Source: Gemmatimonadaceae bacterium
Lineage (GTDB): Bacteria > Gemmatimonadota > Gemmatimonadetes > Gemmatimonadales > Gemmatimonadaceae
Direction of reading: 5' to 3'
NCBI GenBank assembly: GCA_013697785.1
Contig: JACCWE010000038.1
Location: 1 to 41,538 of the forward strand
DNA length: 41,538 nucleotides
Below are positions 5,819 to 27,997 of the stretch, piece after piece. The notes under the pieces are model-generated. The model ran no database searches. It was given only the letters and a program-made list of their open reading frames with translations, and had not been told where the DNA came from. The position numbers were made by a program, and so were the translations under genes. Numbering within the stretch: the first letter of the stretch is position 1; each line of letters starts with the position of its first letter.

Positions 5819-6514
5819 TCACGGCGTGCCGAGCTTCCAGTCGCTCCTGTCACGGAAGGGCGGTGTGAAGTGAGATTCCAGCCACGCGATCCACGCGTCG
5901 ATTCCCTCGCCGGTGCGCCCGGACGTCTCGAGGATGGGAAGCTCGGGCCGCACCTCGTGGATATTCGCATATGCGGCGTCACGATCGAACTCCACAGCGG
6001 AGGCGAGATCGGTTTTCGTGATCAGCGCGCAGTCCGCCGAGTTGAAAAGTGTGGGATACTTCAGCGGCTTGTCCTCGCCTTCGGTCACCGACAGCAGGAC
6101 GACACGAATGTGCTCACCGATATCGTAGCTCGCCGGACACACGAGATTTCCCACGTTCTCGATGAAGAGAACGTCGAGGTCGTCGGCGACCCAGCCGTCG
6201 AGTGCGTTGGAAACCATCCGCGCGTCGAGGTGGCACACGGTGCCGGTGCTGATCTGCTTCACCGGCGCGCCCGACCGTGCGAGACGCTTCGCGTCGTTGT
6301 CCGTCGCGAGGTCTCCGGTGAGCGCCGCCACCCTGTACCGATCGCGCATCGTACGCAGCGTCGTTTCCAGAAGGGCCGTTTTCCCCGCGCCGGGGCCGGA
6401 CACCAGATTCACGACAAGGACGCCCGCATGCGTGAAGCGCGAGCGGAGTTCGCGGGCGAGAACGTCATTCTCCTTGAGAATGTTCTGCCTGACTTCAACG
6501 ATTCGCGGAGACAT
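5819..6514 (-). CDS. hypB: Hydrogenase nickel incorporation GTPase HypB
   Basis: 231 aa SIMIBI-class GTPase that, with HypA, delivers Ni to the hydrogenase large subunit in the cytoplasm. Visible motifs are the P-loop SGPGAGKTALLET (about residue 39), LTGDLATDNDA, the metal-site region TGTVCHLDA, FIENVGNLVCPASYDIGEH (switch and metal site), and the NKxD-type base motif as ITKTDL. No N-terminal His-rich or CTTC nickel-storage extension is present. The ATG at 6514 was chosen because MSPRIVEVRQNILKEND is the usual N-terminus; a longer frame upstream is the overlapping hypA region. It overlaps hypA by 20 bp, so the pair is cotranscribed away from hypF. Confidence 0.95.
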   Translation of the reverse strand: MSPRIVEVRQNILKENDVLARELRSRFTHAGVLVVNLVSGPGAGKTALLETTLRTMRDRYRVAALTGDLATDNDAKRLARSGAPVKQISTGTVCHLDARMVSNALDGWVADDLDVLFIENVGNLVCPASYDIGEHIRVVLLSVTEGEDKPLKYPTLFNSADCALITKTDLASAVEFDRDAAYANIHEVRPELPILETSGRTGEGIDAWIAWLESHFTPPFRDRSDWKLGTP

Positions 6515-6857
6515 CCTCCTCGACCTCCAGCGCAAAGAGCTCGAGCTCGCGACCGCCGATGAGATCGGGCGTGAAGTCGCCGCAAACGGGACAGTGCAGG
6601 TGCTGTGCGCTCGCGAGCACGCGATCGGCCGAGCAGGTCGTGCAGCGCGCGACAATCGGCATCGTTTCGATGACAAGTCGCGCTCCGGCTATTCGCGTGC
6701 CGTCGCACGCGAGCGTAAAGGAAAACGCCAGCGCCTCCGCGACGACGCCCGACAACGGTCCGAGCCGCACATGCAGCGCCTCGACGCGCGCGCCGAGCGA
6801 CTCGGCCTGTTCGCACGCGACGTCCACGAGGCTCATGGCGATCGATAGCTCGTGCAC
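6495..6857 (-). CDS. hypA: Hydrogenase maturation nickel metallochaperone HypA
   Basis: About 120 aa. Starting at GTG 6857 gives MHELSIAMSL, which preserves the family's invariant Met1-His2-Glu3 nickel site; ATG 6869 would add four residues and displace it. A GGGA element lies six bases before the GTG. The zinc site is seen as CTTC (about residue 74) and CPVC (about 93). HypA hands Ni to the large subunit in partnership with HypB, encoded immediately downstream with a 20-bp overlap. The pair diverges from the hypF-led operon, and the 313-bp intergenic region carries a long inverted repeat and a candidate promoter. Confidence 0.93.
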   Translation of the reverse strand: MHELSIAMSLVDVACEQAESLGARVEALHVRLGPLSGVVAEALAFSFTLACDGTRIAGARLVIETMPIVARCTTCSADRVLASAQHLHCPVCGDFTPDLIGGRELELFALEVEEDVSANR

Positions 6858-6984
6858 TACCAATCCCATGGCGTGAGCGCGAACCAGCGGCGGCAAGACG
6901 ATTGCATTCTCCAGGACCTCTCCGGCAAACGAGCAACAGCGCATGGCGGCCAGGCATCTCGCGATCCGGCTCCGCGGTCTCTTG

Positions 6985-7170: not shown

Positions 7171-9501
7171 ATGCGCGTTCGTCTGCACATTGACGGTACC
7201 GTTCAGGGCGTCGGCTTCCGGCCGTACGTTTACCGTCTGGCGCACGACATGAACCTCGGCGGGTTCGTCCGCAACGATGCGCGCGGTGCGGTTGTGGAGC
7301 TCGAGGGTTCGTGCGCAGCGATCGACACGTTCGTGCAGCGCCTCGGAATCGAGCAGCCACCACTCGTGCAGATCGAGCACATCACCCGCGAAGACATCTC
7401 CGAACAGGATTCGGATTCCTTCGTCATCCAGACGAGCACCATCGTGCATCCGGACGACGCGGGCGTCGCTCTCGTACCGCCCGATGTCGCGACGTGCGAC
7501 GACTGTATCCGGGAGCTCTTCGATCCCGCAGACCGTCGATACCGGTACCCCTTCGTGAACTGCACCAACTGCGGCCCACGATTCACGATCATCCGCGGAA
7601 CGCCGTACGACCGGCCTCTCACCACGATGGCCACATTTCGCATGTGCCCGGCGTGCCGGCACGAGTACGAGGATCCGGCAAACCGCCGCTTTCACGCGCA
7701 ACCCAACGCCTGCCCGGCGTGCGGACCCCGTGCTCGCCTGACGGATGCCGTGGGTGCCGGCGTCGAAACGCGAGACGCCGCCGATGCGGTCTCCGCCGCG
7801 GCGCACCTGCTGCGCGATGGTGCGATCGTCGCCGTGAAAGGCGTCGGCGGCTATCACGTGGCGTGCCTTGCGCGCGACGAATCGGCGGTCCAACGGTTGC
7901 GCGATCGGAAGCACCGGCCGCACAAGCCGTTTGCCGTCATGGCTCCGGACCTCGTAGTTGCACGGAACCTCATCGAGACGAGTGTGGTTACGGAGCAGCT
8001 CCTGGCTTCACGCGAGCGCCCAATCGTGCTCGCGCGCCGCAGAGACGACGCACCAGTGGCCGGCGCTGTCGCGCCCTGCCTTCTCGACCTCGGCGTCATG
8101 CTGCCCTCTTCCCCACTGCATCAACTGCTGCTCCATGACGTCGGGTCGCCAGTGGTGATGACGAGCGGCAATCTCACAGATGAGCCGATCGCATTTCGCG
8201 ACGATGAGGCGCGCGAACGACTGTCGGGAATCGCCGACTATTTTCTCTCGCACGACCGGACGATCGAAACGCCCACGGATGATTCGGTGGTTCGTGCCGT
8301 CACCGTTGCCGGTCACCAGCGTGCGATGATGATTCGTCGCTCTCGTGGCTATGCGCCGTCCCCGCTGGCGCTTCCCGTTGCCGCGACTACGCCATTGCTT
8401 GCGTGCGGTGCGCAGCTCAAGAACACATTCTGTCTCGCACGCGGCACGCGCGCGTGGGTCGGCCCGCACGTCGGCGATCTGGAGCGCTATGAGTCGCTGC
8501 GGGCCTATCGTGACGGCATCGCACATCACGAGCGCCTGTTTGGCTTGTCGCCCACGCACTTCGCGCATGATCTCCATCCCGAATATCTATCGACGAAGTA
8601 CGCGCTCGAGCGTGCCGAGTCCGGCGCGACCTGCGAGGCGATCGCGGTGCAGCATCACCACGCGCACCTTGCGGCGTGCCTCGCGGAACACGGAGAGACG
8701 CGCCCCGCCATCGGCGTGATCTTCGACGGTACCGGGCTCGGAACGGACGGCGAGCTCTGGGGCGGAGAAATTCTCGTGGGGGACCTCGTATCGTGCGAGC
8801 GAGTGGGCCACCTGCAGCGGGTTCGAATGCCGGGCGGCGAAGGGGCCGTTCGCGAACCGTGGCGCATGGCGTGCTCATGGTTGAGCGAGCTGCACCCCGA
8901 ATCGGTCTCGACCATTCCCGCGATGCTTCGCCGGGATGTGGATGAGCGCTCGTGGCGATCGGCCGTTCACCTCGTGCGGAGCGGTCTTGCATCGCCGCGG
9001 ACATCGAGTGCGGGCCGCTTGCTCGATGCGATGGCGGCACTCTGCGGCATCCGGGCTCGGATCACCTACGAAGGGCAGGCCGCGATCGAATTTGAGGCCG
9101 TGGCCGATTGGGGAGAGAAGGAGCGCTACCGCGTGCTCCTGTGTCCGGTCAACGACCTGATGGTCCTCGACGTCCGATCCCTCGTCGCCGGAGTCGTTGC
9201 GGACTTGGCGCTCCGGGTGCCGGTGGCCGCAATCTCGGCGCGCGTACACAATTCGCTGGCTCGTGCGGCCGCGGATTGCTGCGCGATGCTTGCCGCATCG
9301 CGGTCACTCGGCACCGTCGTGATCAGTGGCGGCGTTTTCCAGAATCTGTTACTACTGCAGCGCACGATACTTGCGGTCGAAGAGAAAGGATTACGGGTCT
9401 TGGTCCCTGAACGTATCCCGCCAAATGATGGCGGCATTGCCTTCGGTCAAACGGCGATCGCTGCTGCACGTGCATTCCATCCTGAACGCGAGCGTCTCTG
9501 A
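7171..9501 (+). CDS. hypF: Carbamoyltransferase HypF
   Basis: 776 aa, normal length. It converts carbamoyl phosphate and ATP to a thiocarbamate on HypE, the precursor of the CN ligands. Domains in order: N-terminal acylphosphatase (GTVQGVGFRPYVYRLA, residues 1-90); two zinc fingers of the CX2CX18CX2C type (CDDC...CTNC and CPAC...CPAC, about 109-187); a YrdC-like domain (KGVGGYHVACLA, about 200-390); and a Kae1-like domain with the metal-binding HHHAHLAACLAEH (about 495) and GVIFDGTGLGTDGELWGGE. It leads the plus-strand maturation operon and shares a 1-nt stop/start overlap with hypC. No strong ribosome site is visible before ATG 7171. Confidence 0.96.
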   Translation: MRVRLHIDGTVQGVGFRPYVYRLAHDMNLGGFVRNDARGAVVELEGSCAAIDTFVQRLGIEQPPLVQIEHITREDISEQDSDSFVIQTSTIVHPDDAGVALVPPDVATCDDCIRELFDPADRRYRYPFVNCTNCGPRFTIIRGTPYDRPLTTMATFRMCPACRHEYEDPANRRFHAQPNACPACGPRARLTDAVGAGVETRDAADAVSAAAHLLRDGAIVAVKGVGGYHVACLARDESAVQRLRDRKHRPHKPFAVMAPDLVVARNLIETSVVTEQLLASRERPIVLARRRDDAPVAGAVAPCLLDLGVMLPSSPLHQLLLHDVGSPVVMTSGNLTDEPIAFRDDEARERLSGIADYFLSHDRTIETPTDDSVVRAVTVAGHQRAMMIRRSRGYAPSPLALPVAATTPLLACGAQLKNTFCLARGTRAWVGPHVGDLERYESLRAYRDGIAHHERLFGLSPTHFAHDLHPEYLSTKYALERAESGATCEAIAVQHHHAHLAACLAEHGETRPAIGVIFDGTGLGTDGELWGGEILVGDLVSCERVGHLQRVRMPGGEGAVREPWRMACSWLSELHPESVSTIPAMLRRDVDERSWRSAVHLVRSGLASPRTSSAGRLLDAMAALCGIRARITYEGQAAIEFEAVADWGEKERYRVLLCPVNDLMVLDVRSLVAGVVADLALRVPVAAISARVHNSLARAAADCCAMLAASRSLGTVVISGGVFQNLLLLQRTILAVEEKGLRVLVPERIPPNDGGIAFGQTAIAAARAFHPERERL

Positions 9502-9779
9502 TGTGTCTCGCAATACCGGGCCAGGTAGTGGGAATCGTCGACGAGGACAAGCGCCTCGCGCGTGTGAGCGTCACCGGCGTCCAGCGCACCGTCAACATCG
9601 CGCTGCTCGATGGGTCCATTCCGCCGGTGGCGCCGGGTGACTGGGTGCTCGTCCACGTGGGATTCGCGATGTCTCGCATCGACGAAGCCGACGCCATGGC
9701 CACGCTCGCGCTCCTCCAGGAGCTCGGATCCGAGTACGAGCTGGAGATCGAAGAGTTCAAGGCGAGCAGCATTCAATGA
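9501..9779 (+). CDS. hypC: Hydrogenase assembly chaperone HypC
   Basis: 92 aa. It begins MCLAIPGQVV: the N-terminal Met-Cys, essential for carrying the Fe(CN)2CO unit from HypD to the large subunit, is intact. The OB-like core ends with GDWVLVHVGFAMSRIDEADA, typical of the family. The start A of ATG at 9501 is the last base of the hypF stop, and its own stop overlaps the next start by 4 nt, so translation of hypF, hypC and the following gene is probably coupled. It acts with HypD encoded two genes downstream. Confidence 0.95.
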   Translation: MCLAIPGQVVGIVDEDKRLARVSVTGVQRTVNIALLDGSIPPVAPGDWVLVHVGFAMSRIDEADAMATLALLQELGSEYELEIEEFKASSIQ

Positions 9780-10018
9780 GTATTGAGGGCCCGGTTGCCG
9801 GTGCATCGTGCGCCGATCCGCATCACTGCATCACGTGCTCTGATGAGGGAGTGCCGATGCGCGTGACGTCGGTCGATGACACGTGCGGCATCGCCGTCTG
9901 TGTCGGCGAACGGGGCTCCGCAATCGAGGTCATGATCGCGCTCGTGAGCGCCGTCCGCATCGGCGACGTGCTGCTCGTGCACGCGGGAACGGCGCTCACG
10001 CGTCTCGCGCCCGCATGA
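9776..10018 (+). CDS. Second HypC/HupF-like protein with an extended Cys-rich N-terminus
   Basis: 80 aa. The C-terminal half (MRVTSVDD...VLLVHAGTALTRL) has the HypC/HupF fold pattern, but instead of an N-terminal MC it carries an extension with CADPHHCITCSDEG, a Cys/His cluster that could bind a metal. This paralogue type occurs beside the canonical HypC in some actinobacterial-type hydrogenase loci; its job is not established. It may be a chaperone devoted to HhyL or an auxiliary iron-site factor. It overlaps hypC and hypD by 4 nt at each side (ATGA), so expression is coupled to both. Confidence 0.82.
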   Translation: MSIEGPVAGASCADPHHCITCSDEGVPMRVTSVDDTCGIAVCVGERGSAIEVMIALVSAVRIGDVLLVHAGTALTRLAPA

Positions 10019-11130
10019 AGTTCGTCGATGAATTTCGCGACGCGGCGCTCGGCGAGAAACTCTCCGCCGAAATTGCGAGCATCGTCGAGCCCGGGCGGCA
10101 CTACAAGATCATGGAGGTGTGCGGAGGTCACACGCATACCATCTACCGGTACGGCATCGATGACTTGCTGCCGGCAAACGTGGAGCTCGTGCACGGGCCG
10201 GGCTGCCCGGTGTGCGTCATCCCCATGGGTCGCGTCGACGACGGCGTGGCGATCGCGCGGCATGCCGATGTGATTCTCACGTGCTTCGGTGATATGATGC
10301 GCGTGCCGGGTGGCAACGGCAGCTTTCTCGACGCGAAGGCCGCTGGCGCCGACATCCGCATGGTCTACTCACCGCTCGATGCGTTGCGCATCGCACGGGA
10401 GCATCCGGACCGGCAGGTGGTGTTCTTTGCCATCGGTTTCGAGACGACCGCGCCGTCGACTGCCCTCACCGTGCTCCGCGCCAGGGCGGAGGGCATCCGC
10501 AACTTCACCGTGATGTGTAATCACGTCACGATTCTGCCGCCGCTGCGTGCGCTGCTCGAATCGCCCGATCTGCGGCTGGACGGCTTCATCGGCCCCGGCC
10601 ACGTCTGCACCGTCGTTGGTGCGCGGCCCTTCGAGTTCATCGCCACGCAGTATCACAAGCCCGTTGCGGTGTCCGGCTTCGAGCCCCTCGACTTTCTTCA
10701 GTCCGTTTACATGGTGCTGAAGCAGCTTGCCGATGGCCGATGCGAGGTCGAGAACCAGTACACCCGCGTTGTGCCGTACGACGGCAATCTGCAGGCACTG
10801 AAGCTGCTCTCGCAGGTATTCGAATTGCGGCCGCATTTCGAGTGGCGGGGACTTGGCTTCATCTCGCAGAGCGCGCTGCAGCTCGCGCCCGAGTTTCGAG
10901 AGTACGATGCGGAAATCCGTTTTGCCGTGCCGGGCATCCGTGTGGCAGATCCCAAAGCCTGCCAGTGCGGCGAGGTGCTCAAGGGCGTGATCAAGCCGTG
11001 GGAATGCAAGGTGTTCGGCACGGCGTGTACGCCCGAGCATCCCATCGGCACGTGCATGGTGTCGAGCGAAGGGGCGTGCGCGGCATACTACAACTTTGGC
11101 CGGGTGGCGCGGGAGCGCGTGGTGGTATGA
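10015..11130 (+). CDS. hypD: Hydrogenase Fe-ligand scaffold HypD
   Basis: 371 aa. HypD carries a 4Fe-4S cluster and assembles the Fe(CN)2CO moiety with HypC and HypE. Visible motifs are MEVCGGHTHTIYRYG with the catalytic Cys (about residue 41), GPGCPVCVIP (about 66-72), FFAIGFETTAPSTA, MCNHVTILPPL, GFIGPGHVC, and the C-terminal cluster-binding region ACQCGEVLKG...WECKVFG...CTPEHPIGTC with the conserved cysteines. The ATG at 10015 overlaps the preceding stop by 4 nt; longer upstream frames are the shadow of the preceding gene. The stop overlaps the hypE start by 4 nt. Confidence 0.96.
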   Translation: MKFVDEFRDAALGEKLSAEIASIVEPGRHYKIMEVCGGHTHTIYRYGIDDLLPANVELVHGPGCPVCVIPMGRVDDGVAIARHADVILTCFGDMMRVPGGNGSFLDAKAAGADIRMVYSPLDALRIAREHPDRQVVFFAIGFETTAPSTALTVLRARAEGIRNFTVMCNHVTILPPLRALLESPDLRLDGFIGPGHVCTVVGARPFEFIATQYHKPVAVSGFEPLDFLQSVYMVLKQLADGRCEVENQYTRVVPYDGNLQALKLLSQVFELRPHFEWRGLGFISQSALQLAPEFREYDAEIRFAVPGIRVADPKACQCGEVLKGVIKPWECKVFGTACTPEHPIGTCMVSSEGACAAYYNFGRVARERVVV

Positions 11131-12230
11131 CGTCCGCGCGCCCGGACGTCACTGAGCGGGATCGCGAGCAGGAAGCGCTCGACAAGATCGATCTCGTGCG
11201 CGCGCGCGCGCCGCGCTTTCGCGACGAGCGGATCACGATGGCGCATGGCGCCGGCGGCAAGGCGACGTCGACGCTGGTGCAGGGGCTGTTCGTCCCTGCG
11301 TTCGATAATGACATTCTGTCGCGCCTCGATGATGCGGGCGTGGTGGAGATCGGCGTCTCACGTCTTGCGATGACGACGGACAGTTTCGTAGTGAGGCCGC
11401 TCGTTTTTCCGGGTGGCTCCATCGGCGACCTCGCCGTGAACGGTACGGTGAATGATCTCGCCGTTGTCGGCGCGCGCCCGATCGCGCTGACGCTGGCGAT
11501 GGTGCTGGAAGAAGGGCTGTCCTCGGAGATCCTCCGTCGCGAAGTCGAGGCCATTGCGCGCGCTGCCCGGAACGCCGGCGTCTCGATTATCGCGGGTGAC
11601 ACGAAAGTCGTGGAGCGCGGGCACGCCGACGGCATGTACATCTGCACCACCGGCCTGGGCCGCGTGGACGAGCGCGCAACGTTGTCGCCGCGGTGCCTCC
11701 AACCGGGCGACCGGGTGCTCGTCTCGGGAAGCATCGGCGATCACGGCACGGCGATCATGCTGGCGCGCGGCGAGTTCGAGCTCGAGGCCGAGATCGTTTC
11801 GGACACACGATCGCTGTGGCCGGTGGTGGACGTCTTACTCGAGGCGGCTGGTCCACACCTCCGCTGCATGCGCGACGCCACTCGTGGCGGGGTGGCCAGC
11901 GTGCTCAACGAGCTCGCGGTCGCGTCGGGGGTCGCCGTGCTCGTGAATGAACGGGCAATTCCCATCCACCCCAACGTGGCCGGGGCCTGCGAAATCCTCG
12001 GCATCGACCCCATGTATGTCGCGAACGAAGGAAAGCTCGTGGCAATCGTGGCGCCGGAGGCGGCTGATCGCGCGCTGGACGCCATCAGGGGAATACCGGG
12101 CTGCGAGGACGCCGCCGACATCGGGGAAGTTCGCACCGAGCCACGGAGCATGGTGCTCGTGCAAACGGCCTTTGGAGGCCGGCGCGTCATGGATCTGCTG
12201 GTCGGTGATCCATTGCCGCGCATCTGTTGA
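11127..12230 (+). CDS. hypE: Carbamoyl dehydratase HypE
   Basis: 367 aa PurM-like ATP-dependent enzyme. It receives the carbamoyl group from HypF on its C-terminal Cys and dehydrates it to thiocyanate, giving CN to iron on HypD. The diagnostic C-terminus PRIC is present with Cys as the last residue. Other motifs: MAHGAGGKAT (about 38), MTTDSFVVRPLVFPGG, VNGTVNDLAVVGARP, SGSIGDHGTAIM, and MRDATRGGVASVLNE. The ATG at 11127 overlaps the hypD stop; a short N-terminal extension (about 30 residues) precedes the canonical start of the fold. It ends the maturation block; hhyS follows after 76 bp, which leaves room for a second promoter. Confidence 0.96.
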   Translation: MTSARPDVTERDREQEALDKIDLVRARAPRFRDERITMAHGAGGKATSTLVQGLFVPAFDNDILSRLDDAGVVEIGVSRLAMTTDSFVVRPLVFPGGSIGDLAVNGTVNDLAVVGARPIALTLAMVLEEGLSSEILRREVEAIARAARNAGVSIIAGDTKVVERGHADGMYICTTGLGRVDERATLSPRCLQPGDRVLVSGSIGDHGTAIMLARGEFELEAEIVSDTRSLWPVVDVLLEAAGPHLRCMRDATRGGVASVLNELAVASGVAVLVNERAIPIHPNVAGACEILGIDPMYVANEGKLVAIVAPEAADRALDAIRGIPGCEDAADIGEVRTEPRSMVLVQTAFGGRRVMDLLVGDPLPRIC

Positions 12231-12306: not shown

Positions 12307-13383
12307 ATGGCCGAGGCAAAGGCGGAGGGAGTGAAAGAGGTCCACGTTCTTTGGATCTCCGAGGGTATGAGCTGTGACGGGGACAGCGTCTCTATCACGG
12401 CGGCGACCCAACCCAGTATCGAAGACGTTCTTCTTGGACTGATTCCTGGGCTTCCCAAGGTGCATCTCCACAACAAGGTCCTCGCCTATTCGCTCGGCGG
12501 CACCTCGAAGTGGGGTGGTCCGGACGACTTCCTTGCCCCATTTCGCAAGGGGCTCACCGGCGAGCTGGGTCCCTTCGTCCTCGTCATCGAGGGATCGATC
12601 CCCAATGAGAACATCGATGGCGAGGGCTTCTGGACGAGCTTCGGAAACGATGAGCAGGGCAATCCGCGCAAGCTGACGTGGTGGATCGATCGCCTCGCTC
12701 CCAAGGCGTGGGGTGTAATTGCCATCGGCACGTGCGCCACGTATGGGGGCATTCACGCCATGGCCGGCAACCCCACTGGGGCGATGGGGCTTGCCGATTA
12801 TCTCGGATGGAACTTCCGGTCAGCTGGCGGACTGCCCATCGTGAATGTTCCAGGATGTCCGGTGCAGCCGGACAACTTCATGGAGACGTTGACGTGGCTG
12901 CTCTTTCAGGCGGCCGGCCTCTCGCCGATGATTCCGCTGGATGCGCAGCTCCGACCCACGTGGCTCTTCGGCAAGACGGTGCACGAGGGGTGCGACCGCG
13001 CCGGCTACTACGAGCAGGGCGACTTCGCGAAGGACTACAACTCGCCCAAGTGCCAGGTGAAGATCGGCTGTTGGGGTCCCGTGGTGAATTGCAACGTGCC
13101 GAAACGTGGATGGATGAACGGCATCGGCGGCTGTCCGAACGTGGGCGGCATCTGTATCGGTTGCACCATGCCGGGCTTCCCGGACAAGTTCATGCCATTC
13201 ATGGATGAGCCGCCTGGAGGAACGATCTCCTCCGCCATCACCGGCGTCTACGGTAAAATGATCCGTAAACTCCGCGCCATCACCAACGAGACGTTGAACA
13301 AGGAACCAAAGTGGCGGCACAACCGGCCCGAACTGACGAGTGGCTACTCGCCGCGTTATCCACAACGGAAAGGAGCTGAGTGA
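12307..13383 (+). CDS. hhyS: [NiFe]-hydrogenase small subunit, actinobacterial type (group 1h)
   Basis: 358 aa electron-transfer subunit, expected to hold three Fe-S clusters. The N-terminal proximal-cluster motif is CDGD (Cys23-x2-Asp26), where most small subunits have CxxC. This Asp ligand is known from the O2-tolerant actinobacterial-type enzyme of Ralstonia eutropha. Further cluster motifs are GTCATYGG, VPGCPVQPDN, HEGCDRAGY, KCQVKIGCWGP and NVGGICIGCTMPG. There is no Tat signal peptide and no C-terminal membrane anchor, so the enzyme should stay cytoplasmic or peripherally bound. The ATG at 12307 follows a GAGGAAGCC ribosome site. The stop overlaps the large-subunit ATG by one base. The usual role of this class is high-affinity oxidation of atmospheric H2 in aerobes. 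Confidence 0.95.
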   Translation: MAEAKAEGVKEVHVLWISEGMSCDGDSVSITAATQPSIEDVLLGLIPGLPKVHLHNKVLAYSLGGTSKWGGPDDFLAPFRKGLTGELGPFVLVIEGSIPNENIDGEGFWTSFGNDEQGNPRKLTWWIDRLAPKAWGVIAIGTCATYGGIHAMAGNPTGAMGLADYLGWNFRSAGGLPIVNVPGCPVQPDNFMETLTWLLFQAAGLSPMIPLDAQLRPTWLFGKTVHEGCDRAGYYEQGDFAKDYNSPKCQVKIGCWGPVVNCNVPKRGWMNGIGGCPNVGGICIGCTMPGFPDKFMPFMDEPPGGTISSAITGVYGKMIRKLRAITNETLNKEPKWRHNRPELTSGYSPRYPQRKGAE

Positions 13384-15167
13384 TGACCACAGCAGCGGCG
13401 CCAGGAAAGGAACGCAAGCTAGTCGACATGCACTGGGATCCCATCACGCGCATCATCGGCAACCTGGGCATCTACACGAAGATCGATTTCGAGAACCGCG
13501 AGGTGGCCGAGTGCCAGAGCACCTCGTCGATGTTCCGCGGCTACAGCGTATTCATGAAAGGCAAGGATCCGCGCGACGCGCATTTCATCACCAGCCGCAT
13601 TTGCGGTATTTGCGGCGACAACCACGCCACCTGCTCGATCTACGCGCAGCAGATGGCGTACGGCATCAAGCCGCCGCCGCTCGCGGAATGGATCATCAAC
13701 CTCGGCGAGGCCGCCGAGTACATGTTCGACCACACGTTGTTCCAGGACAATCTGGTGATGGTGGACTGGTGCGAGCAGATGGTGAAGGAAACCAATCCGG
13801 CCGTGCTCGCGAAGGCGGAGACGACCGCCGCGCCGCACTCGGACATCCATGGGTTCAAGACCATCGCCGACATCATGCGCGCCTTCAATCCTTTTACGGG
13901 ATCCATGTACAAGGAGGCGCTGCACATCAGCCGGGTGACGCGCGAGATGTTCTGTCTCATGGAAGGACGCCACGTGCATCCCTCCACGCTGTATCCGGGC
14001 GGCGTGGGCACGGTCGCCACGCCACAGGTGTTCACCGACTATCTCGTGCGGCTCATGCACGTGCTCGACTTCGTGAAGAAAGTCATTCCGCTCAACGACG
14101 ATCTCTTCGACTTCTGGGTCGACGCCGTGCCGGGTTACGAGGAGGTGGGAAACCGCCGCATTCTGCTCGGCTGCTGGGGCTCGTTCCAGGACCCCAACTA
14201 CTGCGATTACGACTACAAGACGATGGACGCGTGGGGCAAGAAGATGTTCGTCACGCCCGGCATCATCGTCGATGGAAAGATCGTGACGAACAACCTTGTC
14301 GACATCAACGTCGGCATGCGCATCCTGCTCGGCAGCTCGTTTTACGATGGGTGGGAGAACGAGCAGAACTTTGTAAACGCGGATCCGCTGGGCAATCCGA
14401 TCCACAAGAGCCATCCGTGGAATCAGACGACGCTGCCGCATCCGCAGAAGCGCGACTTCAATGGCAACTACAGCTGGGTCATGAGTCCGCGATGGTACGA
14501 CAAACGGAGCGACGATCATCTGGCGCTCGACACCGGAGGCGGCCCCCTCGCGCGCTTGTGGTCCACGGCGCTGAGTGGTCTCGTCGATCTGCCGAACATC
14601 AAGGCGACCGGCAGCAGCGTGAAGATCAATCTTCCCAAGAGCGTCCAACTGCCGGAGATGGAATTCGAGTGGAAGATTCCCACACGCTCGAACACCATCG
14701 AGCGCGATCGTGCCCGTATTTATTTCATCGCGTACTCCGCGGCGGCGGCGATCTATTTCCTGGAACAGGCGATGAAGGAAGTGCGCGCGGGGCGCACCAA
14801 GGTGTTCAACGACTTCAAGGTGCCCGAAGAAGCGATCGGCTGCGGCTTTCACGAAGCGGTGCGGGGCGTGCTCTCGCACCACATGGTGATCAAGAATGGC
14901 AAGATCGCGAATTATCATCCCTATCCCCCCACGCCATGGAACGCGAGCCCCAGGGATAGCTTCGGGACGCCGGGCCCCTACGAGGATGCGGTGAACGGCA
15001 TGAAGATCTTCGAGGAAAACAACCAGGACAACTTCAAGGGGATCGACATCATGCGCACGGTGCGCAGCTTCGATCCGTGCCTGCCGTGCGGCGTGCACAT
15101 GTATCTCGGCAATGGCAAGACCATCAAGACCGTGCACTCGCCGATCTTCGCTGGGTCCGCCAAGTGA
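13383..15167 (+). CDS. hhyL: [NiFe]-hydrogenase large subunit, actinobacterial type (group 1h)
   Basis: 594 aa catalytic subunit holding the NiFe(CN)2CO centre. The L1 motif RICGICGDNHATC provides Cys74 and Cys77; the L2 motif DPCLPCGVH provides Cys566, Cys569 and the cleavage-site His572. All four Ni ligands are present. After His572 there are 22 residues (MYLGNGKTIK...), the C-terminal tail removed by a maturation endopeptidase once Ni is loaded; that protease is encoded downstream in the same operon. The sequence of L1 and L2 fits group 1h. The ATG at 13383 was preferred to GTG 13380 because AAAGGAG lies at good spacing. Confidence 0.96.
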   Translation: MTTAAAPGKERKLVDMHWDPITRIIGNLGIYTKIDFENREVAECQSTSSMFRGYSVFMKGKDPRDAHFITSRICGICGDNHATCSIYAQQMAYGIKPPPLAEWIINLGEAAEYMFDHTLFQDNLVMVDWCEQMVKETNPAVLAKAETTAAPHSDIHGFKTIADIMRAFNPFTGSMYKEALHISRVTREMFCLMEGRHVHPSTLYPGGVGTVATPQVFTDYLVRLMHVLDFVKKVIPLNDDLFDFWVDAVPGYEEVGNRRILLGCWGSFQDPNYCDYDYKTMDAWGKKMFVTPGIIVDGKIVTNNLVDINVGMRILLGSSFYDGWENEQNFVNADPLGNPIHKSHPWNQTTLPHPQKRDFNGNYSWVMSPRWYDKRSDDHLALDTGGGPLARLWSTALSGLVDLPNIKATGSSVKINLPKSVQLPEMEFEWKIPTRSNTIERDRARIYFIAYSAAAAIYFLEQAMKEVRAGRTKVFNDFKVPEEAIGCGFHEAVRGVLSHHMVIKNGKIANYHPYPPTPWNASPRDSFGTPGPYEDAVNGMKIFEENNQDNFKGIDIMRTVRSFDPCLPCGVHMYLGNGKTIKTVHSPIFAGSAK

Positions 15168-15176: not shown

Positions 15177-15557
15177 ATGTCGCTCACTGACGCCGAGGTG
15201 CGCGAGCGAGTCGCCGGAATCGACTCGCTGCTGGAACGCGTGGAGGCGATCGCGGAGCCTTCCGCGCATACGGCCGCACTCGAAACGGTGCAGGCGCTGC
15301 TCGACCTGTACGGCGAAGGGCTCGCCCGGATGGTCGGACATGTGGCCGCGGAGTGTCGCGGGGCCACGCAGCAGGACATCGCCGACGCATTCGCTGGCGA
15401 TGAGCTGGTGTCGCATCTGTTGCTGCTGCACGGGCTCCATCCGGCCGGCCACCTGTCGGTCACGCAACCCGAGCAGCCGCCGGCGCTGGTGCCGCTTCGG
15501 CGCGCGCGTCGTGCCGACGCCTCACCAGGTGTGGTTTCGGCCGGCGGTGTGGGATGA
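15177..15557 (+). CDS. Hydrogenase-operon protein with the N-terminal domain of NifU-type hydrogenase accessory proteins, NifU part missing
   Basis: 126 aa. The first 90 residues are helical, with the block LLDLYGEGLARMV and then ELVSHLLLLHGLHP. In related hydrogenase loci, as I recall them, this block is followed by a NifU-like domain with a CxxC Fe-S site. Here the tail after HGLHP is short, Pro/Arg rich and contains no cysteine pair, and neither other frame restores a NifU domain. The gene therefore seems to be a shortened version, perhaps keeping a binding role only. It begins 9 bp after hhyL and overlaps the next gene by 4 nt. Function unknown; a part in Fe-S cluster supply or HhySL assembly is inference. 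Confidence 0.75.
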   Translation: MSLTDAEVRERVAGIDSLLERVEAIAEPSAHTAALETVQALLDLYGEGLARMVGHVAAECRGATQQDIADAFAGDELVSHLLLLHGLHPAGHLSVTQPEQPPALVPLRRARRADASPGVVSAGGVG

Positions 15558-16237
15558 TTGAACTGGCTGGCGGCGGCGCCGAACGAACCATCTACGCGAG
15601 CCGGCTGTACCGTCTCGCGCAGCCGCGCGCCGCGACGACGGTGGCGCCGCAACCGGCCTCGGTGGAGCGCTGTGAGCTGTGCAGCGTCGCGGTTCCCGCG
15701 GAACACCGGCATCTCATCGACACGCAGAATCGGCGGCTGGTATGCTCGTGCCGCGCGTGTTCGGTGCTCTTCGACAACGCGCCCGGCGTGAAGTTGCACT
15801 ACAAGCTGATTCCGCCCGACGTGTTCGATCTGCCCGGCTTCGAGCTGAACGAGCTGTTCTGGGCGAATCTCGCCATTCCCGTGGACCTCGCGTTCTTTTT
15901 TTTCGATACCGTCGCGGCCCGCGTCGCTGCGCTCTATCCCGGTCCCATGGGTGCCGCGGAATCGCAGCTGCCACTCACGGCCTGGGACGACCTCGTGCAG
16001 GCCAATCCTCCCCTTCGCGCGCTCGAACCAGACGTGCAGGCGCTACTCGTCAACCGGACGCGTGGAGCACACGAGCAATGGCTCGTGCCTATCGATGTGT
16101 GCTACTCACTCGTGGGCCTCATTCGCCTCCACTGGAAGGGGCTTGCCGGCGGCGAAGAGGTCTGGACGGCGCTGGACGAGTTTTTTGGCGAGTTGCGTCG
16201 GCGCGCGTCAACGCTTTCAACAGGAGTCGTGTCATGA
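15554..16237 (+). CDS. DUF5947 family protein (hydrogenase-associated, Cys-rich)
   Basis: 227 aa. The family signature is seen at about residues 38-78: ERCELC...HRHLIDTQNRRLVCSC and CRAC, followed by LLF-type strand and HYKLIP. Two CxxC-like pairs plus His suggest a zinc ribbon or rubredoxin-like/Fe-S metal site. The C-terminal half (PVDLAFFFFDT, PYPGPMGA, WDDLV, IDVCYSLVGLIRLHWKGLAGG) has no known function. DUF5947 proteins are found in operons of actinobacterial-type hydrogenases. The ATG at 15554 overlaps the previous stop, and its stop overlaps the next ATG by 4 nt. A role in electron transfer from HhyS is possible but unproven. Confidence 0.85.
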   Translation: MIELAGGGAERTIYASRLYRLAQPRAATTVAPQPASVERCELCSVAVPAEHRHLIDTQNRRLVCSCRACSVLFDNAPGVKLHYKLIPPDVFDLPGFELNELFWANLAIPVDLAFFFFDTVAARVAALYPGPMGAAESQLPLTAWDDLVQANPPLRALEPDVQALLVNRTRGAHEQWLVPIDVCYSLVGLIRLHWKGLAGGEEVWTALDEFFGELRRRASTLSTGVVS

Positions 16238-16449
16238 AGAAAGGACCGATCACCGTCGGCACTCCGGATGTCGACGTGGAACTGCCGTCGCACGTGTCGG
16301 GCGTTCTGCAGGGCAACGACGTTGGGCACTACGGGAAGATGAAAGGACATCTCGCTGACGGCACGTCCACAGCGGCGCGATCCACGGGCATCGGGGCTGA
16401 CAAGCACGGTCCAATCGACCCGCGCATGCCGAATCTCTCGCCTGCGTGA
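16234..16449 (+). CDS. Small hydrogenase-operon protein of unknown function (71 aa)
   Basis: 71 aa, starting at ATG 16234 after a CAGGAG ribosome site. It is polar, Gly-rich and without cysteines or membrane segments. Blocks that look constrained are the N-terminal VELPSHVSGVLQGN, the central GHLADGTSTAARSTGI and the C-terminal PIDPRMPNLSPA. Both ends overlap neighbouring genes by 4 nt, so it is an embedded member of the hydrogenase operon. I do not recognise a named family. Such a soluble, flexible protein could be a chaperone or a structural partner of the complex; this is speculation. Confidence 0.78.
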   Translation: MKKGPITVGTPDVDVELPSHVSGVLQGNDVGHYGKMKGHLADGTSTAARSTGIGADKHGPIDPRMPNLSPA

Positions 16450-17165
16450 CAGCGCCACCCGGCGAACTGCGGCAGCGCGACGTGCTCCCGGTACATCCGG
16501 CAAGTGCGGCGGTGCCGCACCTGTCGTTCGCGGTCGTGAATGCCGAGGCCGAGCCGTACGCCGCTGTGCCAACGTTGCGTTTTATGTTGGCCATCGAATC
16601 GCCCGAACCGCATCCGGCGATCCGGTCGCTGCTGCTCGCGACCCAGATTCGCATTGCCGTGGCGCGACGCACCTATGATGCGCGCGAACATGCACGGCTC
16701 GCGGAGCTCTTTGGGACGCCCGATCGCTGGGGCGAAACATTGAAGAGCCTCCTCTGGACGCATACGACGACGGTATCGCCAGCGTTCGAGGGGAAAACGG
16801 AGTTGGCACTACTCGTTCCCTGTACCTGCGATTTCGACATCGTGAGCGCCAAGTATCTCTCCGGTGTGGAGAGCGGCGACATTCCGCTCGACTTCCTCTT
16901 CAGCGGCAGCGTGTTCTATGATGACGCCGACGGCAGGATGCAGACGGCGCGACTCAGTTGGGAGTCGGAGGCGCGCTACGCGCTGCCCGTGCGCGTGTGG
17001 AAGGACATGATGAACCATTATTACCCCGATAGCAGCTGGATTCGCCTGCGCCGCGACGAGTATGACCGCCTCTATGCGTATCGCGCCGAGCGCTCGCTTC
17101 AGACGTGGGAGCACACGGTCGATGCGTTGCTGTCGGCCGCATCGCGCGAGCCGGAGCACGGCTGA
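16446..17165 (+). CDS. DUF6084 family protein (hydrogenase-associated)
   Basis: 239 aa. Conserved-looking blocks of the DUF6084 family: LSFAVVNAEAE near the N-terminus, PTLRFMLAIES, IRSLLLATQIRI, ARLAELFGTPDRWGETLKSL with LWTHTT, VPCTCDFDI, PLDFLFSGSVFYDD, LPVRVWKDMMNHYYPDS and a C-terminal LQTWEHTVDALL. It looks soluble, beta-rich and without membrane segments. The start GTG at 16446 overlaps the previous stop by 4 nt; the ribosome site is weak, consistent with coupled translation. Members occur with group 1h hydrogenases; the molecular role is unknown. Confidence 0.85.
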   Translation: MTAPPGELRQRDVLPVHPASAAVPHLSFAVVNAEAEPYAAVPTLRFMLAIESPEPHPAIRSLLLATQIRIAVARRTYDAREHARLAELFGTPDRWGETLKSLLWTHTTTVSPAFEGKTELALLVPCTCDFDIVSAKYLSGVESGDIPLDFLFSGSVFYDDADGRMQTARLSWESEARYALPVRVWKDMMNHYYPDSSWIRLRRDEYDRLYAYRAERSLQTWEHTVDALLSAASREPEHG

Positions 17166-17166
17166 C

Positions 17167-18186
17167 ATGGGCGCGCTCGAGCAGATCGCGAAAACCGTGC
17201 TGTACGAGGGATACGTGCTGTGGCCATATCGCCGGAGCGCGGTGAAGAATCAGCAGCGATGGACATTCGGCGGGATCTACCCGCGCGCGTATGCGGACGT
17301 GAGTGGCGGAGCCGACCGGGCGGTCGTGCGCACGGAGTGTCTGATCGAAGCGATGGCCAACGCGCGAGTCACGGTGTCGGTACGCTTTCTTCACGTCGTT
17401 GCTCGGCAGGTCATGCGGTGCGACGCGACGGGTGACGTCGCCGTGAATGAGCTGACGGTGGCGGGGACGCGCTATCTATCGTGGGACGAAGCCACCGAGC
17501 GCACGTTCAACGCGTCGGTTTCGCTCGACTCGGAGGATGTCTGCGTCACGGAGCCGATTTGCGTCGAGTCGGGCAGTCTGCGCGAAGCGCTACCCGAGGG
17601 AAACGAGGAAGCTGGTGCGGTGGTTCGCAGTTGGGACGCGCTGCAGGGCACGATCGAGGTGACGGTTCGCCATTGCGCCGGTCGCGTGCATCGCGTCAGC
17701 GTGGTGGTGACGAACGAGGACACATGGAATGGAAGTGGGCGCGAGCAGGCCGTGCGTCATTCGTTCAATTCCGCACACGTGGTACTACGGGCGGCCGAGG
17801 GGGCGTTCGTCTCGCAGTTCGACCCACCAGCGGAGCTGGCAATCGAGAGTGCCGCAAACCGCAACGAAGGTGTGTACCCTGTGCTCGTTGGCGAGGACGG
17901 CGCGCGCGACACCATGCTCGCGTCGGCCATGATCCTCTATGACTACCCTCGCATCGCGCCTGAGAGTCCCGGCGACCTGTTCGACGGCGGCGAAATCGAT
18001 CAGCTGTTGATCCTCAACATCCTGACCCTTACAGAAGATGAGCAGCGCGAGATGAGCGACAGCGATCCGCGGGCCCGGGAGATTCTCGAGCGTTGCAAGG
18101 CCCTCACCAGCGAGGAGCTCATGCGCCTGCACGGCACCGTGCGCTCGCTGCAACCGCTCTCGATGGGCGCCGGGGCCGGGACGTGA
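17167..18186 (+). CDS. Hydrogenase-operon protein of unknown function (339 aa)
   Basis: 339 aa from ATG 17167, one base after the preceding stop. The N-terminus has VLYEGYVLWPYRRSAVKNQQ and RWTFGGIYPRAYA, strongly patterned and typical of a family that accompanies actinobacterial-type hydrogenases. The middle is beta-rich (VTVSVRFLHVVARQV, TIEVTVRHCAGRVHRVSVVV). The C-terminal part has a helical segment DQLLILNILTLTEDEQREM followed by PRAREILERCKALTSEELMRLHG. No signal peptide, membrane helix or cofactor motif is visible. The stop overlaps the next start by 4 nt. It may act in large-subunit assembly; no direct evidence. Confidence 0.82.
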   Translation: MGALEQIAKTVLYEGYVLWPYRRSAVKNQQRWTFGGIYPRAYADVSGGADRAVVRTECLIEAMANARVTVSVRFLHVVARQVMRCDATGDVAVNELTVAGTRYLSWDEATERTFNASVSLDSEDVCVTEPICVESGSLREALPEGNEEAGAVVRSWDALQGTIEVTVRHCAGRVHRVSVVVTNEDTWNGSGREQAVRHSFNSAHVVLRAAEGAFVSQFDPPAELAIESAANRNEGVYPVLVGEDGARDTMLASAMILYDYPRIAPESPGDLFDGGEIDQLLILNILTLTEDEQREMSDSDPRAREILERCKALTSEELMRLHGTVRSLQPLSMGAGAGT

Positions 18187-19028
18187 ACGACATCTGGGGC
18201 GAGCTGCAGCGTGAACCGCCGACCTCCGTGATGATTGCCGGTACGATGGTGAGGCGTGGCACCCGTGTGCGCCTGGCACCGCGGCCTCGCGGCGACGTCT
18301 TCGACGGCATACTCGCTGGCAAGCTCGGGATCGTGGAGGGGCTGGACGAGAGCCTCGATGGCGAGATTCAGGTGGCCGTCACTCTCGAAGACGATCCGGG
18401 ACGCGACCTTGGCGAGGGCCGCTACCCAGGTCATCGCTTCTTCTTCTCCACCAGCGAGGTCGAGCCAGTTGACGGTGCCGATGCCGAATCATCGCCCGCG
18501 CGCGCGCCGCGCATTCTCATCGCGGGAATCGGCAACATCTTTCTCGGCGACGATGGCTTTGGCGTGGCCGTCGCACAGAAGCTCGTGACGCGCACGCTTC
18601 CGCGAGGCGTGGAGGCGCGCGACTTCGGAATCCGGGGAATGGATCTCGCCTACGCCATGCAGAACGACTACGACGCGGTCATCCTGATAGACGCCAGCCC
18701 TCGCGGACAGGCGCCGGGCACCTTGTACGTGATCGATGCGCAGGTGGACAGCGAAGGGCCAATGACGATGGACACGCACGGCATGGACCCCGTGAAGGTC
18801 CTTGCACTCGCCCGCGCGCTTGGCCGGGTTCCCCCGCGTGTGATCGTACTCGGATGCGAGCCGGAACGGCTGGAGCCTTCGGACTCCTGGTCGGAGATGG
18901 ACATGTCCCTCAGCGCGCCCGTGCGCGCCGCAGTTGATGAGGCCGTTGCGCAGGTGGAAGCACTGGCGCGCGGTGTGCTCGATGAGCTCAACCCCCAAAC
19001 CCCTGTTCTGGAGAACCAAGCGCCATGA
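18183..19028 (+). CDS. Hydrogenase maturation endopeptidase with an extra N-terminal domain
   Basis: 281 aa fusion. Residues 1-95 form a domain with VRRGTRVRLAPRPRGDVFD and EDDPGRDLGEGRYPGHRFFF, found with group 1h hydrogenases. Residues about 105-275 are a HyaD/HybD/HoxM-type protease: ILIAGIGNIFLGDDGFG with the Ni-sensing Glu replaced by Asp or carried nearby, AYAMQNDYDAVILIDAS, the DTHGMDPVKVLALA His, and VIVLGCEPE. It should clip the 22-residue tail of HhyL after His572. The GTG at 18183 overlaps the preceding stop by 4 nt. The added domain may recognise HhyL or tether the protease to the assembly complex. Confidence 0.88.
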   Translation: MNDIWGELQREPPTSVMIAGTMVRRGTRVRLAPRPRGDVFDGILAGKLGIVEGLDESLDGEIQVAVTLEDDPGRDLGEGRYPGHRFFFSTSEVEPVDGADAESSPARAPRILIAGIGNIFLGDDGFGVAVAQKLVTRTLPRGVEARDFGIRGMDLAYAMQNDYDAVILIDASPRGQAPGTLYVIDAQVDSEGPMTMDTHGMDPVKVLALARALGRVPPRVIVLGCEPERLEPSDSWSEMDMSLSAPVRAAVDEAVAQVEALARGVLDELNPQTPVLENQAP

Positions 19029-19132
19029 AAGTCCTTCTGATCGAACTCGCCATTCTCGTCGTCATTGGAATCGCGCTGTTCATCCGCGAGATTCCCGAGT
19101 TGCGACGCTACCTCAGGATGCGATCGATGTGA
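19025..19132 (+). CDS. 35-aa single-pass membrane protein (DUF6893-like)
   Basis: 35 aa: MKVLLIELAILVVIGIALF forms one transmembrane helix, followed by an acidic/basic tail REIPELRRYLRMRSM. The short TM-plus-RYLRMR pattern resembles the DUF6893 miniproteins of actinobacterial hydrogenase operons, from memory. The ATG at 19025 overlaps the protease stop by 4 nt and its own stop overlaps the next start. With no anchor on HhyS or HhyL, this peptide is a candidate to tether the enzyme to the inner membrane. Confidence 0.72.
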   Translation: MKVLLIELAILVVIGIALFIREIPELRRYLRMRSM

Positions 19133-20361
19133 GCACAGGCGTCGAGCATTCACTCCACGCGCACGTTGAGGAGCTGCTCGGCCAGCGTTCTGAGCTCACT
19201 ACTCCATTCTTTCGTCGGGAGTCGCCACGCATTGCTGAGCTCTGCCAACGCATGGCGGATCGCTTTGCGCGCGGCGGACGCCTCATCGCCATGGGCCAAT
19301 CGCCTGCCGCGAGGTCGGATGTTCGCCACATCACCGTGGAGTTCGTGCACCCGGTGATCGTTGGAAAGCGGGCCCTTCCCGCTCTTGGCTTCACCGGCGA
19401 CACGGGCTCTCTCGAGCGACAACTGGATCTGCTCGCGCGCGCCGATGACATGGTCATCGCCTTTGAGGGCGACGCCTCGACACATTCGCACAGCACACGA
19501 AACGCCACCGCTATGGCCCGGGGGCGGGGGTGTCTGACGATCGCTTTTGCGCGGGTAGGTGCCGAATGGGAATTTGCTTCGCCGGTGACTGACGCGTTCG
19601 AGTGGCAGGAGTTGGGAGAGGTGCTCTACCACCTGCTTTGGGAGCTCGTGCATGTGTTCTTCGAGCATGGCGCAGCGTGCGCGGAAGCGGCCAGGCCCGC
19701 GGCAGGAGGTGCGGCGGCCGCGAGTTTTCTCTACCCGTTCCTCGAATCGTCGCAAGCCGATCTGTCGCGCGTGCTGGCGGACGTCCAACAATCGATCGTC
19801 TTCAAGGCCGATGAGCTCACGGCGCTACGCGCGCAGACCATTGGCGAGCGTGAGTCGCCGAACAGGGTAGCATTGCTCGGCGCCGCCACATCACTTCGCG
19901 CCGCATTCGATGCCGGCGGAACGCTGCTCGCGTTCGGCAACGGCGGCTCGGCCACTGATGCTACGGACGCCGCGGCCGACTACCGCTTTCCGCCCGGCGA
20001 GTGGCCCAGCCGGCGTGCGCTCGATCTCTCAGACGATTCGGCGATCATCACCGCGCTCATGAACGACATTGGCGCCGACGTCATCTTCTCCAGGCAGATC
20101 ATCGCGTATGCACAACCGCGCGACGTCGTGATGGCGTTTTCCACGAGCGGCGACTCGCGCAACGTGATCCAGGCGCTCGCCGAGGCACGGGCACGCGGCC
20201 TGAAGTCGATTGCCTTCGTGGGCTACGACGGTGGCCGCATACGTGCGGAACGCCTTGCCGATCACACCATCGTGAGCGAGTCGCAGAACATCCCTCGCAT
20301 TCAGGAGGCGCAGGCCACGGCTCATCACATTCTGAGGTCGCTCGTCGAGCGGGCGTCTTAG
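19129..20361 (+). CDS. Tandem SIS-domain protein, GmhA-like C-terminal half
   Basis: About 410 aa from GTG 19129, which overlaps the previous stop by 4 nt. The C-terminal half matches sedoheptulose-7-phosphate isomerase-type SIS domains: LLAFGNGGSATDATDAAADY (about residue 265), ALMNDIGADVIFSRQIIAYAQPRDVVMAFSTSGDSRNV and SIAFVGYDGG. The N-terminal half has a second, more diverged sugar-phosphate-binding pattern (GGRLIAMGQSPAARSD, ADDMVIAFEGD) and a linker helix with HVFFEHG. SIS proteins accompany several group 1h hydrogenase loci without an explained link to sugar metabolism. No heptose genes are nearby, so a regulatory or small-molecule-binding role is as likely as catalysis. Last gene of the operon. 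Confidence 0.82.
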   Translation: MSTGVEHSLHAHVEELLGQRSELTTPFFRRESPRIAELCQRMADRFARGGRLIAMGQSPAARSDVRHITVEFVHPVIVGKRALPALGFTGDTGSLERQLDLLARADDMVIAFEGDASTHSHSTRNATAMARGRGCLTIAFARVGAEWEFASPVTDAFEWQELGEVLYHLLWELVHVFFEHGAACAEAARPAAGGAAAASFLYPFLESSQADLSRVLADVQQSIVFKADELTALRAQTIGERESPNRVALLGAATSLRAAFDAGGTLLAFGNGGSATDATDAAADYRFPPGEWPSRRALDLSDDSAIITALMNDIGADVIFSRQIIAYAQPRDVVMAFSTSGDSRNVIQALAEARARGLKSIAFVGYDGGRIRAERLADHTIVSESQNIPRIQEAQATAHHILRSLVERAS

Positions 20362-21471: not shown

Positions 21472-21516
21472 ATGGGCCAGCGAGGAGTTGAACCTCGGAC
21501 CTCACGCTTATCAGGC
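21472..21516. repeat. Island attachment site, far end (45-bp tRNA-Ile 3' duplication)
   Basis: Identical over 45 bp to 35331-35375, in direct orientation, and covers the anticodon loop to the 3' end of tRNA-Ile. The match ends abruptly at 21517 (C instead of G). It is the original chromosomal 3' end of the tRNA gene, separated from its 5' half by insertion of the island. Confidence 0.92.
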
Positions 21517-27843: not shown

Positions 27844-27997
27844 CACGCGTCCCATGACAAATGCGCAAGCGGCCAAAACAAAAAGAGGCGATCGTGGGCG
27901 AAGTCGGTCACCCGCGCCAGTGAATGTTCTCTCTTGCACGCTCCCAACAATTCAATCTGCAGATTCACTCCGTGTCGATGATTGGCTCGCACACTCA

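What the first reader, a model, noticed from the sequence alone, without database searches (positions are those of the whole stretch)
15177..20361. Eight-gene accessory cassette of mostly unknown function, translationally chained to hhySL
Every gene from 15,177 to 20,361 lies within 9 bp of, or overlaps by 1-4 nt, its neighbour, which implies fixed stoichiometry and a dedicated function. Apart from the protease, none has a known role: NifU-like N-terminal domain, DUF5947, a 71-aa protein, DUF6084, a 339-aa protein, a 35-aa membrane peptide and a double SIS protein. No cytochrome b or quinone reductase is present, so the electron exit and membrane anchor must lie in this set or elsewhere. It is the best candidate for an undescribed system here.
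Basis: partly seen in the sequence, partly recalled or inferred. Interest (0 to 1): 0.75.

Follow-up and report, generated by a model that had tools for sequence, protein, structure and literature searches.

The report
Helper genes of atmospheric-hydrogen hydrogenase
The eight chained genes are the known but poorly understood helper set of the enzyme that lets soil bacteria live on hydrogen from air; one of them, a 35-residue membrane peptide found in nearly every such gene cluster, is a good candidate for the enzyme's missing membrane anchor.

Summary
In detail: eight open frames at 15,177-20,361 follow hhySL with gaps of -4 to +9 nt. It is not an undescribed system. HhySL is a group 1h [NiFe]-hydrogenase (closest solved relative HofKG of Cupriavidus necator), and five of the genes match its PHG066-PHG070. 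Across 89 group 1h loci from at least seven phyla, HhyE, DUF5947, the 339-aa protein and the protease recur. Four refinements. (1) The 35-aa peptide (DUF6893) has a relative in 80 of 89 loci, unannotated in C. necator and a Mycobacterium; in 298 genomes of the window's phylum it passes its family cut-off only in the five with a group 1h enzyme. It is the best candidate for the membrane anchor that a July 2026 paper calls unidentified. (2) The 71-aa protein is an unlisted family tied to these hydrogenases. (3) The 339-aa protein plus the protease's N-terminal SH3-like domain equal one known protein; the gene boundary is shifted. (4) This HhyE lost its NifU-like domain, and 77 of 89 HhyE lack CxxC, so HhyE is unlikely to be the general electron exit; DUF5947 keeps an invariant Cys/His site. 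Functions remain inferred.

The parts
12307..13383 (+). hhyS, group 1h small subunit
   Evidence: Best PDB match HofK 5aa5, E 1.7e-167; CDGD motif kept
13380..15167 (+). hhyL, group 1h large subunit; L1 TSRICGICGDNH, L2 SFDPCLPCGVH; 22-aa C-terminal extension after His573
   Evidence: Best PDB match HofG 5aa5, 1057 bits, aligned to residue 573; sequence
15177..15557 (+). truncated hhyE: N-terminal helical domain and a short tail; NifU-like Fe-S domain deleted in frame
   Evidence: Alignment with relatives; no Pfam NifU match; C-terminal domain present in nearly all relatives
15554..16237 (+). DUF5947 (homologue of PHG067): C40 C43 H51 H53 C64 C66 C69 invariant; N-terminal part weakly resembles treble-clef metal sites
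   Evidence: PF19372 E 1.6e-69; 60-row alignment; AlphaFold2 pLDDT 86; weak fold matches Z 4.6
16234..16449 (+). p71: conserved soluble 71-aa protein, no Pfam or NCBIfam family
   Evidence: 60 of 89 group 1h loci; alignment; strong matches in 4 of 298 genomes, all with group 1h HhyL
16446..17165 (+). DUF6084 (homologue of PHG068)
   Evidence: PF19562 E 8.4e-83; 50 of 89 loci
17167..18186 (+). p339: beta-rich body of the PHG069-type protein
   Evidence: Homologous to the C. necator hypothetical protein, E 6.6e-70; AlphaFold2 of a naturally fused relative, pLDDT 84
18183..18500 (+). N-terminal ~105 residues of the protease gene: SH3-like domain that in 43 ORFs of other loci sits at the C-terminus of the p339 protein instead
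   Evidence: fold matches PetP Z 8.2 over 78 residues and NusG/Tudor barrels
18501..19028 (+). HycI/HupD-type hydrogenase maturation protease domain
   Evidence: TIGR00072 127 bits, PF01750
19025..19132 (+). p35: single-pass membrane peptide, DUF6893, C-terminal motif PELRRYLRMRSM-stop; candidate membrane anchor
   Evidence: PF21833 E 1e-9; 80 of 89 loci; over cut-off in exactly the 5 group 1h genomes of 298
19129..20361 (+). double SIS protein (two GmhA-like SIS halves)
   Evidence: PF13580, TIGR00441; SIS genes in 35 of 89 loci, downstream of p35 in Actinomadura
7171..12230 (+). hypF, hypC, hypD, hypE just upstream of hhyS: general cofactor-assembly genes of the same module
   Evidence: Homologues in relatives, including annotated C. 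necator hyp genes
5819..6944 (-). hypA and hypB on the opposite strand
   Evidence: PF01155 and PF02492

Best explanation
The eight genes are the dedicated assembly-and-anchoring set of a group 1h (high-affinity, 'Hhy') cytoplasmic [NiFe]-hydrogenase. HhySL splits H2. The protease trims the 22-residue tail of HhyL after His573. The p339 protein with its mobile SH3-like domain, DUF5947 with its Cys/His metal site, DUF6084 and the HhyE N-domain act on or with HhySL during assembly; DUF5947 may also relay electrons. The 35-aa DUF6893 peptide spans the membrane once, with its conserved basic C-terminus on the cytoplasmic side, and holds the HhySL complex at the membrane so that electrons can enter the quinone pool. 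p71 is probably an extended binding or assembly element of HhySL. Shown here: gene identity, conservation, strict association, fold predictions and the loss of the HhyE NifU-like domain. Inferred: every functional step, the anchor role included.
For: HhyL/HhyS match HofG/HofK of C. necator at 1057 and 561 bits; the next PDB relatives score 164 and 148 bits. Same gene order in C. necator pHG1, Methylocystis, Mycobacterium, Kitasatospora and Streptomyces records and in named genomes of many phyla. DUF5947 is on exactly the 12 plasmids with a group 1h HhyL, and in 4 of the 5 group 1h genomes among 298, the fifth contig ending 0.5 kb after hhyL. The SH3-like domain moves between p339 (43 ORFs) and the protease (28 ORFs), tying p339 to large-subunit maturation. 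p35: relatives in 80 of 89 loci, against one comparable hit outside the operons in 2.3 Mb of control strand; hydrophobic segment then basic tail; DUF6893 over cut-off only in the 5 group 1h genomes (Fisher p 5e-11). Group 1h enzymes are membrane-associated and no anchor has been identified (PMC7174314, PMC13332983).
Against: C. necator has the peptide too, yet its enzyme is described as cytoplasmic (PMC4377017), so the peptide alone does not predict a membrane-bound preparation. No interaction, localisation or phenotype was tested. The metal-site fold match of DUF5947 is weak (Z 4.6, rmsd 3.0 over 51 residues; no Foldseek match with E <= 0.001). Methylacidiphilum is reported to have a membrane-associated group 1h enzyme without the homologous hypothetical proteins (PMC7174314).
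Confidence: 0.6

Rival explanations
1. The cassette is an electron-transfer chain: DUF5947 (PHG067, related to MSMEG_2717) takes electrons from HhyS and passes them to quinone, with HhyE as a partner.
For: PHG067/MSMEG_2717 was proposed as electron acceptor (PMC6883350). Its Cys/His site is invariant. HhyE is essential in M. smegmatis (PMC6883350).
Against: Nearest folds of the site are metal fingers and NosL, not redox domains, though the matches are weak. HhyE lacks CxxC in 77 of 89 loci and is cut to its N-domain here and in Actinomadura craniellae. The artificial acceptor NBT does not make up for loss of HhyE (PMC6883350).
Confidence: 0.25
2. All the unknown proteins, p35 included, are transient maturation factors, working like the Hox/Hup accessory proteins of oxygen-tolerant hydrogenases; none is in the final enzyme, which docks to a partner encoded elsewhere.
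For: The solved C. necator enzyme 5aa5 shows HofG and HofK chains. The genes lie among maturation genes, and the SH3-like domain fuses to the protease.
Against: No Hox/Hup accessory family matches any of them. A maturation factor need not be a membrane peptide with so conserved a C-terminus.
Confidence: 0.3
3. p71 or p35 plays the part of HucM: a scaffold that oligomerises HhySL and guides quinone to it.
For: HucM does this for the group 2a enzyme Huc (PMC10017518). In two myxobacterial loci p71 lies directly behind hhyL.
Against: p71 shows no hydrophobic stretch (sequence) and its profile matches no PDB chain at E up to 10; p35 is far shorter than HucM (188 aa); p71 is not found in 29 of 89 loci.
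Confidence: 0.1

Closest known systems
AH module of Cupriavidus necator H16 (hofKG, PHG066-PHG070; group 5 = group 1h)
   Same: Gene order hhyS-hhyL-hhyE-DUF5947-DUF6084-p339 type-protease; HofG 73.7% identical to HhyL; also has a 33-aa membrane peptide, unannotated, at pHG1 66,753-66,854
   Different: The window adds p71, has the SH3-like domain on the protease instead of on p339, a truncated HhyE and a double SIS protein; C. necator has a single SIS gene among the hyp genes
Hhy operon of mycobacteria (MSMEG_2718 = HhyE and MSMEG_2717 in M. smegmatis; examined here on an M. intracellulare plasmid, L010)
   Same: hhySL-hhyE-DUF5947-DUF6084-p339 type-DUF6893 peptide-protease
   Different: Mycobacterial HhyE is full length with three CxxC motifs; no p71
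Streptosporangiales and Actinomadura hhy operons (L015-L017, L064, L066, L077, L082)
   Same: Same order including p71, SH3-like domain on the protease, p35; Actinomadura also a double SIS downstream
   Different: HhyE keeps its C-terminal domain, except in L073
Huc (group 2a) with HucM and HucE
   Same: Cytoplasmic high-affinity hydrogenase with NifU-like and accessory proteins and a membrane link (PMC10017518, PMC6883350)
   Different: HhyL is only a distant relative of HucL (121 bits); HucM is encoded directly upstream of hucS, whereas hypE is in that place here

Membership tests
[quoted passage not shown]
   Both present in the translated hhyL
Group 1h [NiFe]-hydrogenase module | Sequence closest to HofKG rather than to other groups | tested here: met
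   1057 vs 164 bits for HhyL, 561 vs 148 bits for HhyS
Group 1h [NiFe]-hydrogenase module | hhyE, DUF5947 and PHG069-type genes directly behind hhyL | tested here: met
Group 1h [NiFe]-hydrogenase module | High-affinity, oxygen-insensitive H2 uptake | not testable with these tools
   Needs respirometry
HhyE iron-sulfur protein | Conserved N-terminal domain | tested here: met
   E 1.5e-31 to the relative in L005
HhyE iron-sulfur protein | NifU-like domain with CxxC | tested here: not met
   One cysteine, no NifU match, domain deleted
DUF6893 (PF21833) | Score over the curated cut-off | tested here: met
   38.7 against 24.6 bits
HucM-type scaffold | Sequence match to HucM chains in the PDB | tested here: inconclusive
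   p71 profile finds no chain at E up to 10; 68 positions is short for a test
Hox/Hup accessory proteins of oxygen-tolerant hydrogenases | Match to a Hox/Hup accessory family | tested here: not met
   None in Pfam or NCBIfam for the unknown genes; likeness of function not tested

The most novel reading that the evidence does not exclude
The 35-aa DUF6893 peptide is the missing membrane anchor, and quinone-side docking subunit, of the group 1h hydrogenases that oxidise atmospheric H2, overlooked because it is too short to be annotated in the model organisms.
Probability: 0.45. Interest if true: 0.75.

Novelty: new member of a known kind. Interest (0 to 1): 0.55.

Why it matters
Group 1h hydrogenases carry out much of the biological uptake of atmospheric H2. 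Purified enzyme loses affinity when detached from the membrane (PMC7174314), and a paper of July 2026 states that no anchoring subunit has been identified (PMC13332983). A near-universal membrane peptide in the operon, unannotated in C. necator and in the Mycobacterium record examined, turns that open question into a single-gene deletion. The loss of the HhyE NifU-like domain here, and of its CxxC in most loci, argues against HhyE as the general electron exit and points to DUF5947.

Tried and rejected
A genome scan with the DUF5947 sequence alone found nothing; the HhyL alignment was needed. I first thought the peptide was absent from Proteobacteria and Acidobacteria, which would have matched the soluble C. 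necator enzyme; a hydropathy and motif search showed it is present there too, so that argument was dropped. HucM homology of p71: no match. Known folds for DUF5947: no Foldseek match with E <= 0.001, only weak second-look matches. The p339 body resembles a domain of DrmA (Z 11.1 over 185 residues), but no sequence match supports kinship and a shared fold says nothing about function. SIS against HypX: 35 loci with SIS, 19 with HypX, none with both, but the HypX loci are nearly all Streptomyces and kin, so no conclusion. Six genomes of the phylum hold a hydrogenase only 41-43% identical to HhyL; the one looked at (L095) has no DUF5947, p71, DUF6084, p339 or p35 nearby. The window's phylum is not named by the tools.

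Full report
WHAT IS THERE. Eight frames run from 15,177 to 20,361 directly behind hhyS (12307-13383) and hhyL (13380-15167), with gaps of -4, +9, -4, -4, -4, +1, -4, -4, -4 nt counted from hhyS. All frames have G+C-rich third positions (0.72-0.85) and conserved relatives.

THE HYDROGENASE. HhyL and HhyS match HofG and HofK of Cupriavidus necator (PDB 5aa5) at 1057 and 561 bits; the next solved relatives score 164 and 148 bits. The L1 and L2 motifs are those listed for group 1h in PMC5364354. The alignment with HofG ends at residue 573, so a 22-residue tail is left for the protease to remove (inference). Upstream lie hypF, hypC, hypD and hypE, and on the other strand hypA and hypB: a complete module.

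THE CASSETTE IS KNOWN. On plasmids, a group 1h large subunit (about 70-75% identity) occurs in 12 records and DUF5947 in the same 12, in no other of 72,556. Annotated records of C. necator, Methylocystis, Mycobacterium intracellulare, Kitasatospora and Streptomyces show hhyS-hhyL-hhyE-DUF5947-DUF6084-hypothetical-protease. PMC4377017 names the C. necator genes PHG066-PHG070, four of them of unknown function. PMC6883350 shows that HhyE is needed for H2 oxidation and says that MSMEG_2717 is related to PHG067, a proposed electron acceptor; PHG067 is the DUF5947 gene by its position (inference and PMC4377017). PMC13332983 reports the same cluster in Rhodococcus equi.

SURVEY. An HhyL alignment brought in 80 named loci from Actinomycetota, Acidobacteriota, Chloroflexota, Pseudomonadota, Myxococcota, Verrucomicrobiota and Planctomycetota. 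With nine earlier loci, profile searches found HhyE in 89, DUF5947 in 85, p339 in 82, the SH3-like domain in 82, the protease in 78, p71 in 60, DUF6084 in 50 and SIS in 35 of 89. The window's order, p71 included, is also that of Microtetraspora, Streptosporangium, Nonomuraea and Actinomadura. In many Streptomyces the p339 gene lies upstream of hhyS and a protease kilobases away on the other strand, so the chaining is not universal.

GENE BOUNDARY SHIFT. The 339-aa protein equals the N-terminal part, and residues 5-102 of the protease gene the C-terminal part, of the C. necator-type hypothetical protein. Across loci this domain is fused to p339 in 43 ORFs and to the protease in 28. AlphaFold2 of a naturally fused relative (pLDDT 84) gives a beta-rich body and a small C-terminal barrel; the barrel matches PetP (Z 8.2, rmsd 3.2 over 78 residues) and NusG or Tudor SH3-like domains. 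The sharing ties p339 to maturation of the large subunit (inference).

HhyE. The window copy keeps the N-terminal ~90 residues and a short tail, and has lost the NifU-like part between them in frame. Actinomadura craniellae (L073) also lacks it. Only 12 of 89 HhyE carry any CxxC; C. necator and Methylocystis do not. A general role of HhyE as iron-sulfur electron carrier is therefore unlikely; truncated forms were already noted in PMC6883350.

DUF5947. C40, C43, H51, H53, C64, C66 and C69 are invariant in 60 sequences; the Cys motif is seen in 84 of 85. The model is good (pLDDT 86), has no Foldseek match with E <= 0.001, and its residues 37-87 resemble NosL and B-box metal fingers weakly (Z 4.6, rmsd 3.0 over 51 residues). 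It is the best remaining candidate for a metal or redox role outside HhySL.

THE 35-AA PEPTIDE. It is DUF6893. A refined profile finds relatives in 80 of 89 loci, with a single comparable hit outside the operons in 2.3 Mb of control strand (area). The eight loci with no hit at all end before the expected place or run off the fetched stretch (positions). A simpler motif search found 45 loci inside the operons and none outside. Of 62 copies scored, 92% have a clearly hydrophobic segment (mean over 1.6), and they end in a basic tail such as RRYLRMRSM. In C. necator it is 33 aa at pHG1 66,753-66,854, with a good ribosome-binding sequence, between the protease gene and hypF, and not annotated; in M. 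intracellulare it overlaps the end of the p339-type gene and is not listed. In 298 genomes of the window's phylum, DUF6893 passes its cut-off in five, exactly the five with a group 1h HhyL (Fisher p 5e-11). No paper in the library mentions DUF6893. Published fractionation says that group 1h enzymes are membrane-associated without a known anchor, and that detached enzyme loses affinity (PMC7174314, PMC13332983). I therefore propose the anchor role; it is an inference. The counter-fact is that C. necator has the peptide although its enzyme is called cytoplasmic (PMC4377017).

THE 71-AA PROTEIN. No Pfam, NCBIfam or PDB match. Strong matches in the phylum only in four of the five group 1h genomes; two further weak ones look like chance. 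Fourteen columns are invariant. In two myxobacterial loci it follows hhyL directly, which suggests contact with HhySL (inference).

VERDICT. Known system, new member; its value lies in naming a testable membrane anchor and in weakening the HhyE electron-carrier idea.

Noticed in passing
21472-21516 and 35331-35375: 45-bp exact direct repeat of the 3' end of tRNA-Ile (35332-35405) bounding a ~13.9-kb integrated element with a tyrosine integrase (34042-35226), a type I restriction system (23408-30301, minus strand), a DUF4411 gene and an Xre/ImmA-type gene (30359-32088). The hydrogenase genes lie outside it.
   Followed up: partly
L005-L093: SIS genes and HypX never share a group 1h locus (35 SIS, 19 HypX, 0 both), possibly only because the HypX loci are nearly all Streptomyces and kin.
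   Followed up: partly
L024, L026, L032, L040, L049, L074: A second HhyS-like small subunit with a CDGD/CDGE motif is encoded about 3-7 kb upstream of hhyS in acidobacterial loci.
   Followed up: no
L042:5841-5957 (minus): A DUF6893-like peptide on the opposite strand, 4 kb upstream of hhyL, perhaps from a divergent second hydrogenase operon.
   Followed up: no
L095 (G126:C26): A different hydrogenase, 43% identical to HhyL, in the same phylum with two maturation proteases and an HhyE-like gene but none of DUF5947, p71, DUF6084, p339 or p35 nearby.
   Followed up: no
window 17167-18186 (p339), via the fused model, residues 16-264: Predicted fold resembles residues 148-423 of DrmA of the DISARM system (Z 11.1 over 185 residues); no sequence support.
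   Followed up: no
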